The notes under the pieces are model-generated. The model worked only from the letters and a program-made list of their open reading frames with translations. It searched no databases and was not told the origin of the DNA. Below are positions 1 to 2,983 of a DNA stretch of 41,055 bases, piece after piece (position 1 is the stretch's first letter; the number at the start of each line of letters is the position of its first letter). The position numbers and the translations under genes were made by a program. The DNA is taken from NCBI GenBank assembly GCA_016931115.1, contig JAFGFM010000174.1, positions 1-41,055 of the forward strand. The letters run 5' to 3'. This stretch comes from Deltaproteobacteria bacterium. Its GTDB lineage: Bacteria > Desulfobacterota > DSM-4660 > Desulfatiglandales > HGW-15.

Positions 1-33
1 AAAATATATTTTCTCTATATAGTCACCGGGCTC

Positions 34-88
34 GTTCAACCACAGGATAAGATTGTGGCTTCGCACAATCTATCCTTATTCGTTCGGT
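34..88 (-). other. attC-like integron recombination site A
   Basis: Read on the minus strand, the site starts with box ACCGAAC (82-88) and ends with GTTGAAC (34-40), which fits the GTTRRRY core-site consensus. Between them a 12-13 bp inverted repeat (45-57 with 64-75) closes a short loop and leaves one unpaired A, the extrahelical base typical of folded attC sites. The stop codon of the preceding gene (76-78) lies inside the site, as is usual for gene cassettes. The 5' box ACCGAAC is the exact reverse complement of GTTCGGT at the start of the same cassette (see attC B), which is what cassette circularisation predicts. The site was recognised by eye, not by a covariance model. Confidence 0.75.
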
Positions 89-522
89 GTCAATTTATGC
101 CACTCAGCTTTATATTTAACTTTACCTCTTTTACCTGAAACATCTTTATTAAAAGGAACCTTTATTTTCTCTTTGAAATCATATTTGTTGTGATCATAAT
201 CAATAACATACCCTGATACGATTATTCTTAAATATTTAGAGCGAATATCAAACTCGCAATCAACCATTGTTGACATATATTGACCATCATCGGTAGTTGT
301 AAATTCATCCATATCTACACTTTCACCATCAGTCCTTTTTTTCATAAAGAAATTTTCAATTCCACGGATATTATATTTCGGAATGTCATAATGAAATGTA
401 ATTTTATCTTCTGCATTTTCTTTGTCACATTGGATATACTCAATGGATTCATCTGTTTTTATTGAACATGAAGCAGCAAAAGCTGTACATAGTAGAAGAA
501 TAGGTATTATTATAATTTTCAT
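76..522 (-). CDS. Integron cassette gene: small lipoprotein of unknown function
   Basis: The gene encodes 148 residues, starting at MKIIIIPILLL. An upstream in-frame ATG at 573 lies across attC B and is unlikely to be used. The N-terminus is a lipoprotein signal: a hydrophobic stretch followed by a lipobox ending AASC, so the mature protein should be attached to a membrane through Cys. The remainder is hydrophilic and rich in Lys, Asp and Tyr, and I recognise no family. The gene fills one cassette between attC B upstream and attC A downstream, in the orientation expected for cassette genes, and its stop codon lies in attC A. No promoter is visible, so expression probably depends on upstream read-through. 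Confidence 0.7.
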   Translation of the reverse strand: MKIIIIPILLLCTAFAASCSIKTDESIEYIQCDKENAEDKITFHYDIPKYNIRGIENFFMKKRTDGESVDMDEFTTTDDGQYMSTMVDCEFDIRSKYLRIIVSGYVIDYDHNKYDFKEKIKVPFNKDVSGKRGKVKYKAEWHKLTPNE

Positions 523-531
523 TATTTCCAC

Positions 532-598
532 ACCGAACGCGCTGCATAAGCGGATTGGCAAGCTTTTCGCCAATTCCGACTTGATGCTGATGTTAGAG
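532..598 (-). other. attC-like integron recombination site B
   Basis: On the minus strand the site runs from box CTCTAAC (592-598) to box GTTCGGT (532-538). An inner stem CGGATTGGC (551-559) with GCCAATTCCG (569-578) leaves one base unpaired, as in folded attC sites. The stop codon of the upstream gene (593-595) lies inside the first box. The last box, GTTCGGT, pairs perfectly with the first box of attC A, and the first box, CTCTAAC, pairs perfectly with GTTAGAG at the end of attC C. This cross-matching between consecutive sites is the signature of inserted cassettes. Confidence 0.78.
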
Positions 599-1045
599 CT
601 TTTGTTCCTTTATTTTATACTTACCTGGTTCATTAAATATTTGGATTTCGACTTTGTATTTATTATTTTCAATTTCATGACCATTCTCTGCAATATATGA
701 GATTAATAAGCCATTTTTATTTTCAATGATCTTTGGTTGTTCAAATGTGTTTTCATGATGGTCATTGTCATATATAGTTAATGTTTTAATTGCTTTGGTA
801 TAACCTTCATTTGAATAGTCTTGCATCCACTGTATGTATAACCAAGAGCAACCATATAAAAATTCAACGTATATTACTCTATAAAACCCTTTTTCAATTT
901 TATAATCCCAATGTCCCAATGATTGAATGCTTGTAATATGAGCACTATGGGATTGCATCAACCTTTCAAAGGAGAACATTGCTGATGATGCATTGTTTGT
1001 AATAATAAAAAGTAAGAAAATTGTGATTGTAATTATTTTTTTCAT
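593..1045 (-). CDS. Integron cassette gene: secreted protein of unknown function
   Basis: The gene encodes 150 residues, starting at MKKIITITIFLL only a few bases after the attC C boundary. A longer start at 1078 would run through the attC site and is rejected. The N-terminus is a typical Sec signal peptide: Lys-Lys, a hydrophobic core, then a likely cleavage site after NASSA. The mature part has many aromatic residues (FYRVIYVEFLYG, WLYIQW) and I recognise no family. It fills the cassette bounded by attC C and attC B, and its TAA overlaps the attC B box. Like its neighbour it encodes an exported product, which is common among sedentary cassette genes. Confidence 0.68.
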   Translation of the reverse strand: MKKIITITIFLLFIITNNASSAMFSFERLMQSHSAHITSIQSLGHWDYKIEKGFYRVIYVEFLYGCSWLYIQWMQDYSNEGYTKAIKTLTIYDNDHHENTFEQPKIIENKNGLLISYIAENGHEIENNKYKVEIQIFNEPGKYKIKEQKL

Positions 1046-1053
1046 TGCTGCTG

Positions 1054-1115
1054 CTCTAACGCCAGGTTTAACCGGCAAGGCGTCAGCCTTGTCGGCGTTG
1101 AAACCTTTGTTATGT
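1054..1115 (-). other. attC-like integron recombination site C
   Basis: On the minus strand the site begins with box ACATAAC (1109-1115) and ends with GTTAGAG (1054-1060). The two arms, AGGTTTCAACGCCGACAAGGC-like on one side and a slightly shorter copy on the other, form a long imperfect stem with unpaired bases around a GTCA-type tip. The TAA of the upstream reading frame (1110-1112) is inside the first box. GTTAGAG matches the complement of the first box of attC B, so the DNA between the two sites behaves as one cassette. Confidence 0.78.
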
Positions 1116-1475
1116 TTTATTAAAGACTTTGTATGTTGTTCCTTTGGGCAACCACCTAAGATATTTTATAAAATCATCTTCAATTATTTTTCGAGATTGT
1201 TTGCCTGGCTCTTTCTCTTCTATCAATAAATATTGCCCAGAAAATATTTTTAACAAGAAATTAATAATGTTTTTTGCTCTTGTATCTGGGTTGCCAAGAC
1301 ACTCACTATGTGTATGCCAGTCTGCTCCAAATACGCCAACAATATCATCATTTTCACCAAGATCATAAATTTGAAGGTCACCGAAACCATTTGGAAGTTC
1401 TATAAACAGTGACTCCTTTTCCTCTCGGAATTTATATTTTCCTTCAATTAGTAAAGGTTTTATTTCAGGAACAAA
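1110..1475 (-). pseudogene. 5'-truncated integron cassette gene
   Basis: A minus-strand frame runs open from 1475 down to TAA at 1110-1112, about 121 codons, with protein-like composition (for example LPNGFGDLQIYDLGEND, VGVFGADWHTHSE and a final KGTTYKVFNKT). It has no ATG, GTG or TTG near its 5' end and is cut off by an in-frame TAA at 1476-1478. Beyond that I find no second recombination box matching ACATAAC, so the front of this cassette seems to have been deleted or replaced. I recognise no family. The stop codon inside attC C supports it being a former cassette gene. Confidence 0.55.
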
Positions 1476-2005
1476 TTATTCACTTGATCCGGCTATCTTT
1501 ACATTTTGAATGTTATACAGAAAGATGAACCGGGATATTAATAAAAAATAATATAAATCAGGGTGTTAACCCCAATTCAAAACCGAAACCATTTTGATAA
1601 TGAACAGCACCACAAAAAGCGTGCTGAATATAACTACCTATATTTAAAAGGAAAAAATATTTTAAAGCTGATGGATAGTACTTAATTGAATAAAAATAAT
1701 CAAATAGAAAAAGCATTTTGTTAAATACAAGGTTATTGGACAAGTCGAAAAATAAGGCTAAGATTTTTTCGTCACAACAGATCCAGGGTATTAAAGGGTT
1801 TTTGTAGGGTAACGCGGCAGCGTGCCCCAATGGCACAGGCTCTGTGCCACTACGAATAAATTAAATGCTATAGAATGAGAAAGACAAAATGGATTCCTAT
1901 TGCTATGGGAATGACGACTTTAATAGAATAGGTCGCGGGATGAAAAAGAAAAACTTGATTCTCCGATCGGTGTCGGGGAATAATGTGTAAAAAAAATTGA
2001 TTGAA
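1476..2005. other. Non-coding stretch at the edge of the integron remnant
   Basis: I see no supportable gene here. It is AT-rich and contains one copy of the dispersed repeat with TGGATTCC and GGGAATGACGA halves (about 1886-1920) and a GC-rich palindromic patch near 1815-1850 (GGCACAGGCTCTGTGCC). A 92-codon minus-strand frame at 1558-1836 crosses this patch and looks spurious. No integrase gene or attI-like site is visible, although this is the side where one would be expected. Confidence 0.5.
1886..1920. repeat. Dispersed short repeat (TGGATTCC...GGGAATGACGA), copy 1
   Basis: About 35 bp with an imperfect inverted repeat (GGATTCC/GGGAAT) ending in ATGACGACTT. Related copies lie at 2545-2597, 2602-2637 and 38745-38776, so this is a genome-type dispersed element and not a gene. 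Confidence 0.6.
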
Positions 2006-2677: not shown

Positions 2678-2784
2678 TTAAAAATATTTATTTTTGTATG
2701 CTTCAACAAATATATCAGGGGAAATACTGGCTTGCTTTAAAATACTATAACTTCATCACCTGAGAGGATGGGCAGCTCAGGCAT
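2678..2784 (-). pseudogene. HicA toxin remnant with the core deleted
   Basis: Starting at ATG 2784, which overlaps the hicB-like stop codon by 8 nt, the frame reads MPELPILSGDEVI, a typical HicA N-terminus, then meets TAA at 2737. In a shifted frame the DNA continues ILKQASISPDIFVEAY up to TAA 2678-2680, which resembles the usual HicA ending (...LRxILKQAGISxEEF...). The middle, including the dsRBD-like fold and the catalytic His region, is gone. This is an internal deletion product, presumably inactive. Confidence 0.62.
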
Positions 2785-2983
2785 TAGCAGATACCTTAAA
2801 TGTTGTAAGAATAGATCGAGGAATAGGGTTTAAAGGGAATTCCTCAAGATATAGTTCTGTTGCTTCCTTAAGATTTATAACCGCCTCCTCAATTGTTTCT
2901 CCCTGGCTAGCGGTACCAATCTCAGGGCATTCTGCAACATACAGATTATCTTCTTTATGTATCACTGCTGTGAATGTATTCAT
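2777..2983 (-). CDS. HicB-family antitoxin (UPF0150-like)
   Basis: A 68-residue protein with the compact HicB N-terminal fold: MNTFTAVIHKEDNLYVAECPEIGTASQG, then ETIEEAVINLKEATELYLEE. This is the classic pattern of a beta strand, the A-E-CPE-LG-A/S-QG motif and an amphipathic helix. It lacks a long C-terminal DNA-binding domain, as short HicB proteins do. Its known role is to bind and neutralise the HicA mRNA interferase and repress the operon. The partner gene immediately downstream (stop/start overlap) is a deleted remnant, so this antitoxin has no intact local target. Confidence 0.82.
   Translation of the reverse strand: MNTFTAVIHKEDNLYVAECPEIGTASQGETIEEAVINLKEATELYLEEFPLNPIPRSILTTFKVSANA

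What the first reader, a model, noticed from the sequence alone, without database searches (positions are those of the whole stretch)
34..1115. Integron gene cassettes with three attC-like sites
Seen: three sites (34-88, 532-598, 1054-1115), each with RYYYAAC/GTTRRRY-like boxes, long stems with unpaired bases and gene stop codons inside. The end box of one site is complementary to the first box of the next (GTTAGAG with CTCTAAC; GTTCGGT with ACCGAAC), as cassette insertion predicts. The pattern fits two complete cassettes encoding exported proteins. Established: attC boxes and extrahelical bases define integron cassettes.
Basis: partly seen in the sequence, partly recalled or inferred. Interest (0 to 1): 0.75.

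Follow-up and report, generated by a model that had tools for sequence, protein, structure and literature searches.

The report
Integron cassettes capped by IS91-type element
The left end of this contig is a short run of integron gene cassettes with no integrase beside it; two of the three reported recombination sites are genuine, and the third is mostly the end of a jumping element that, across this bacterial phylum, tends to land on the edge of exactly such sites.

Summary
The boxes, hairpins and box-to-box complementarity are real and not chance: none of 400 shuffles gave a single linked pair, and none appeared in 12 segments covering 1600-38600. Sites B (532-598) and C (1054-1115) are attC sites on the minus (cassette) strand. 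They flank an intact cassette whose stop codon lies in B's R'' box. No integrase lies on this contig (a CALIN). The genome's only intact IntI sits at the end of another contig; further attC sites lie on several more.

Site A (34-88) is a hybrid. Only its R'' box (82-88) belongs to the cassette. Window 1-81 is the conserved end of an IS91-family element (about 2.4 kb: HUH transposase plus tyrosine recombinase), and its hairpin is polarised opposite to B and C. The same end occurs in 41 of 395 genomes sampled from the phylum. Over 87 distinct flanks it abuts [AG]C[CA]TAAC, i.e. the attC R'' box, in 49 of 83 cases just behind a gene's stop codon. In several complete copies, joining the flanks restores an attC.

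The array is ordinary. An IS91-type element preferring attC R'' boxes was not found described in the papers I could search. A second repeat (1463-1544) heads several arrays and may be attI-like.

The parts
1..81 (-). End of an IS91-family element (remnant or beginning of a copy; the contig breaks inside it). Hairpin about 38-75; internal box GTTGAAC (GTTGGAC in most copies) at 34-40.
   Evidence: 94% identical to C168:23141-23221 beside a truncated IS91 transposase; same end in 41 of 395 genomes; sequence conserved past the GTT in all but about three copies
82..88 (-). R'' box ACCGAAC of the 147-aa cassette's attC, the junction with the element
   Evidence: exact complement of GTTCGGT at the cassette start; equals the target logo of the element
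79..519 (-). Cassette ORF, 147 aa, lipoprotein-like signal (MKIIIIPILLLCTAFAASC); reading frame runs into the element, stop at 76-78
   Evidence: no Pfam or NCBIfam match over cut-off; no relative in 85 genomes of the order
532..598 (-). attC site B, three unpaired bases on the 3' arm of the + strand
   Evidence: body 92% identical to an attC on C90 that has other boxes and other genes
593..1045 (-). Complete cassette ORF, 150 aa, signal-peptide-like N-terminus; stop TAA inside the R'' box CTCTAAC
   Evidence: no relative in 85 genomes of the order
1054..1115 (-). attC site C
   Evidence: best window hit of the independent attC model though weak (10.6 bits); body 85% identical to C25:2803-2865
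1110..1475 (-). Cassette ORF without a usable start codon (about 120 aa), probably truncated; stop inside the R'' box ACATAAC of site C
   Evidence: its first box GTTCCTG does not match ACATAAC
1463..1544 (-). Site D: dispersed repeat heading this and other arrays, possibly attI-like

Best explanation
This is the left end of a chromosomal cluster of integron cassettes without a neighbouring integrase (a CALIN) in what is probably a Desulfobacterota genome. The cassettes were placed there by an integron integrase, most likely the long IntI encoded on another contig, by bottom-strand recombination at attC R' boxes (inferred). The last cassette's attC was then hit at its R'' box by an IS91-family element: the element's conserved hairpin end now follows ACCGAAC and the contig breaks 81 bp into it. 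Across the phylum this element family (IS91-type HUH transposase plus a tyrosine recombinase, unit 2.33-2.45 kb) preferentially sits with that end against attC R'' boxes. In complete copies its far end is the reverse complement of its internal box (GTTGGAC...GTCCAAC), so the split attC regains an R'' box and the unit looks like a gene cassette inserted backwards. Shown: sites, chain, element end, target logo, restored attC in some copies. Inferred: that the element's own enzymes make these insertions, and that the IntI on C146 built the array.
For: Chain and folds beyond chance. One intact IntI in the genome, 382 bits against cut-off 265, C146:5186-6625; its family stands beside attC arrays in Geotalea, Geomobilimonas, Kuenenia and others, with strong covariation of the attC stem. 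Further attC sites in the own genome on C90, C168, C25, C62, C39, C180 and C176. Element end: C168 copy next to an IS91 transposase (NF033538, 216 bits). Six G053 copies on one contig, 99.8% identical over 2.45 kb. Logo over 87 distinct flanks: AAC in 78, T/G/C before it in 86, A or G at -7 in 66. Open frame of at least 90 codons ending near the junction in 49/83, against 14/83 on the reverse strand. Flank joins give attC in G427:C42 (-22 kcal/mol) and three G053 copies (-16 to -26).
Against: Only 81 bp of the element are in the window, so no transposase is seen there; in G001:C146 the same end is a short remnant. G225 copies sit in ordinary sequence at xAAC, so attC is preferred, not required. 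Only 4 of 16 complete copies (7 of them in G225) give an attC join by my strict test (control 22/320). The independent attC model was not significant in the window. Array and intI are on different contigs. Copies were found by the hairpin end, so constant orientation is partly by construction.
Confidence: 0.8

Rival explanations
1. Site A is a plain third attC of the array, and the similarity left of it is a shared neighbouring cassette.
For: It has an R'' box complementary to the cassette start, a hairpin and a GTT box, and passes my attC scanner.
Against: Body, GTT box and some 30-40 bp beyond it are conserved together in almost all copies from many genera, while the sequence before AAC differs every time. 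The hairpin's unpaired base is on the opposite arm from B and C. IS91 genes lie inward in fuller copies.
Confidence: 0.07
2. The element is itself a gene cassette (start G|TTGGAC, genes forward, own attC GTCCAAC...body...G|TTRRRY) inserted backwards by the host IntI through top-strand recombination at R'' boxes, rather than by its IS91 transposase or its tyrosine recombinase.
For: Read on the opposite strand, the unit has every mark of a cassette including complementary boxes, and its unpaired base is polarised that way. Top-strand recombination shifts the crossover to the R'' box (PMC2727003).
Against: Top-strand recombination is normally rare (PMC2727003), yet all copies found are in this orientation. 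G225 carries 12 copies at non-attC xAAC sites. xAAC resembles the IS91 target as I remember it (GAAC/CAAG).
Confidence: 0.2
3. The IS91-type element has no taste for attC; it simply uses an extended sequence such as [AG]C[CA]TAAC, which is frequent in cassette arrays.
For: Copies outside attC use the same xAAC core.
Against: Excess of junctions just behind gene stop codons, and several restored attC; but these do not separate sequence from structure.
Confidence: 0.35

Closest known systems
CALIN (cluster of attC sites lacking an integron integrase; described in PMC8618304)
   Same: Chained attC sites with small orphan ORFs and no integrase nearby
   Different: Contig end prevents seeing the full array; the last attC is occupied by an IS91-family end
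IS91 family / ISCR elements (HUH transposase, rolling circle; PMC9330008)
   Same: Transposase family, no target duplication, one end abutting a short fixed target ending in AAC
   Different: Tyrosine recombinase partner, complementary cassette-like boxes at both ends, preference for attC R'' boxes
IS1111-attC group (ISKpn4, ISPst6; Tetu & Holmes 2008, Post & Hall 2009, cited in PMC11187229)
   Same: Insertion sequences that home to one end of attC sites
   Different: Those use a DEDD transposase guided by a seekRNA; here the enzymes are HUH transposase and tyrosine recombinase
Group IIC-attC introns (PMC7923331)
   Same: Mobile element associated with attC sites
   Different: Retroelement with reverse transcriptase; none in the element here

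Membership tests
attC site (B and C) | R'' and R' boxes with AAC...GTT and a foldable bottom strand with unpaired bases on the R''-L'' arm | tested here: met
   definition in PMC2727003
attC site (B and C) | R' of one site complementary to R'' of the next | tested here: met
attC site (B and C) | match to an attC covariance model | tested here: inconclusive
   own model from other genera: site C 10.6 bits, E 0.9; B not listed; IntegronFinder's model not available
attC site (B and C) | recombination by an integron integrase | not testable with these tools
   needs experiment
attC site (A, as member of this array) | sequence after G|TT is that of the next cassette and differs between copies | tested here: not met
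   same sequence follows in almost all copies
CALIN | at least two attC sites without integrase nearby | tested here: met
   sites B and C; no intI on this 41-kb contig; region left of position 1 unseen
Complete integron | intI and attI adjacent to the array | tested here: not met
   intI is on C146; attI role of site D unproven
IS91 family (element end 1-81) | HUH transposase of the family adjacent to this end | tested here: met
   in C168 and in complete relatives; the transposase itself lies outside the window
IS91 family (element end 1-81) | insertion next to a fixed short target without duplication | tested here: met
   xAAC in 78 of 87 flanks; at most the AAC is shared by both junctions
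IS91 family (element end 1-81) | rolling-circle transposition | not testable with these tools
   needs experiment
IS1111-attC group | DEDD transposase | tested here: not met
   element genes are Zn_Tnp_IS91/Y2_Tnp and tyrosine recombinase
Group IIC-attC intron | intron-encoded reverse transcriptase at the site | tested here: not met
   no such ORF in the complete units; no Rfam hit in the window

The most novel reading that the evidence does not exclude
A phylum-wide group of IS91-type elements with a tyrosine recombinase partner has specialised on the R'' box of integron attC sites and carries cassette-like boxes, so that each insertion re-forms an attC on one side and leaves an attC mimic on the other: a transposon that lives in cassette arrays and may itself move as a backwards cassette.
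Probability: 0.45. Interest if true: 0.62.

Novelty: new variant of a known kind. Interest (0 to 1): 0.48.

Why it matters
The attC-homing elements I found described use IS1111-type transposases or group II introns. An HUH element with the same taste would be a further, independent solution. It would show how arrays are interrupted or inverted without the integrase, would warn that some attC predictions are transposon ends, and explains why contigs break at such places. The cassette array on its own is ordinary.

Tried and rejected
Rfam gathering scan: no hits. The R1 attC model is too specific for these AT-rich sites. My first reading of site A as the third attC, with the same next cassette on C168, was dropped. 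Site D as a long attC was considered and set aside because the repeat extends left of its AAC. Whether C146 continues directly into another array contig could not be tested. Structure predictions of both cassette proteins had mean pLDDT 53 and 44, so no fold search was run. Cassette protein relatives: none in 85 genomes of the order and none in viral contigs for the 147-aa protein. Papers: no report of attC-targeting IS91 elements in the held library, which lacks many subscription papers.

Full report
Observation. The window is an entire contig (C228, 41,055 bp, of a 5.18-Mb, 240-contig genome), so nothing to the left can be read. On the minus strand, reading right to left, lie: site D (1463-1544), a cassette ORF without a start, site C (1054-1115), a 150-aa ORF, site B (532-598), a 147-aa ORF, and site A (34-88). 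Stop codons lie in the R'' boxes of C and B. The box links C-B and B-A are perfect. In a chain test none of 400 dinucleotide shuffles gave even one link, and 12 overlapping segments over 1600-38600 gave none. Folding is better than shuffles for A and C (z -3.4 and -3.8) and weaker for B (z -1.9, 15 of 200 shuffles as good); but B's body recurs at 92% on C90 with other boxes and other genes, in a second chained pair.

Integrase. The genome has one intact integron integrase, 479 aa with about 160 extra N-terminal residues, on C146; the catalytic motifs and the integron-specific stretch are present by eye. Its contig ends at the stop codon. Relatives (80 loci) come from Desulfobacterota, Nitrospirota, Geobacter-type and anammox bacteria, from which I infer that the window's genome is Desulfobacterota. 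In Geotalea, Geomobilimonas, Kuenenia and others canonical arrays stand divergently upstream of intI, and their attC stems covary strongly (covariation score 0.416 against 0.129 in shuffles). In the nearest relatives a conserved site of about 100 nt follows the 3' end of intI instead, and in L025, L027 and L037 attC sites lie beyond it with the same polarity as intI.

Site A. Searching 1-1460 in relatives showed that 1-84 is a repeat of its own. The copies continue unchanged through the supposed R' box (GTTGGACAAGCCCGG...), so this GTT is not a recombination junction, while the sequence before AAC is different each time. In C168 the end lies beside a truncated IS91 transposase and a broken tyrosine recombinase. 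In G053, six copies on one 48-kb contig define a 2.45-kb unit with both genes whose far end is GTCCAAC, the reverse complement of the internal GTTGGAC. Units of 2.33-2.45 kb with the same rule occur in G225, G427, G221, G414 and G342. A model of the end (R3; the window copy was one of its 15 seeds) found it in 41 of 395 genomes of the phylum, often in many copies and often at contig ends, which explains the break of C228. The hairpin has modest covariation support (2 of 12 pairs change on both sides).

Target. Of 87 distinct flanks, 78 end in AAC. Position -4 is T (60), G (14) or C (12); -5 is C (49) or A (32); -6 is C (56); -7 is A or G (66). The commonest 7-mers, GCATAAC, ACCTAAC and GCCGAAC, are typical attC R'' boxes. 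An open frame of at least 90 codons ends near the junction in 49 of 83 flanks, often with the TAA of TAAC as its stop, against 14 on the reverse strand. Joining flanks yields well-folded attC in G427:C42 and in three G053 copies, and the independent attC model recognises a G053 site re-formed with the element's GTCCAAC box (L221:5375-5441, E = 1.7e-6). Copies in G225 are in ordinary sequence at xAAC. So the element follows a short xAAC rule with a strong preference for R'' boxes; whether this is an extended sequence preference, hairpin recognition, or mere availability of arrays is open.

Interpretation. The array itself is an ordinary CALIN with orphan cassettes. CALINs are known and may arise by off-target insertion by an IntI elsewhere in the genome, loss of intI, or rearrangement (PMC8618304). 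What is not ordinary is the occupant of site A. The closest known analogues, IS1111-attC elements (PMC11187229) and group II introns at attC (PMC7923331), use different enzymes. The same transposase-plus-integrase pair is annotated in plasmids of other bacteria, so the gene pair itself is known; the attC preference is what I did not find described.

Site D. An 80-bp repeat, part of a longer leader of roughly 190 bp, occurs at about ten places in this genome and more in its sister species. On C39 and C176, and in G067, its GTTNNNN is matched exactly by the R'' box of an attC-like site behind the next gene, and C180 carries a chained array behind it. Its tail GTGAATAAATTGTT resembles the intI-adjacent tail TGATAATAACTTGTT of relatives. 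This could be a family of attI-like platforms used in trans, but other copies lack the GTT, no copy was seen beside intI, and a plain leader or promoter repeat is not excluded.

Limits. The literature held is incomplete. The target of classical IS91 (GAAC/CAAG) is from memory. Signal peptides were judged by eye.

Noticed in passing
window 1463-1544 (-); C39:2218-2297, C180:33243-33322, C176:983-1054 and others: Dispersed repeat with tail GTGAATAA(A/T)TTG|TT heading cassette-like genes, about ten copies per genome in this genus; resembles the attI-like site downstream of intI in relatives. Possibly many attI-like platforms served by one integrase in trans, or a plain leader repeat.
   Followed up: partly
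L021:8806-8900, L022:9443-9585, L027:9432-9558, L037:9443-9575: Conserved 100-nt attI-like site directly downstream of a long IntI in Desulfobacterota, with cassettes running in intI's own direction (inverted layout).
   Followed up: partly
L016:5186-6625 (C146): Integron integrase with about 160 extra N-terminal residues, conserved over the full length across several phyla; role of the extension unknown.
   Followed up: partly
L019:3239-4519 (C39): ORF of 426 aa that looks by eye like a group II intron reverse transcriptase, about 1 kb upstream of a cassette array headed by the site-D repeat.
   Followed up: no
L221:7865-8800 (G053:C178): Cassette ORF next to an element copy that looks by eye like a TIR-type protein, possibly defence-related.
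   Followed up: no
L316 (G368:C10) and L317 (G436:C33): Element ends whose hairpin runs straight into TTATTC|GTT, so that both sides look like xAAC junctions; possibly solo hairpins.
   Followed up: no
window 2777-2983 (-): Weak HicB-like antitoxin match below the Pfam cut-off; partner not checked.
   Followed up: no
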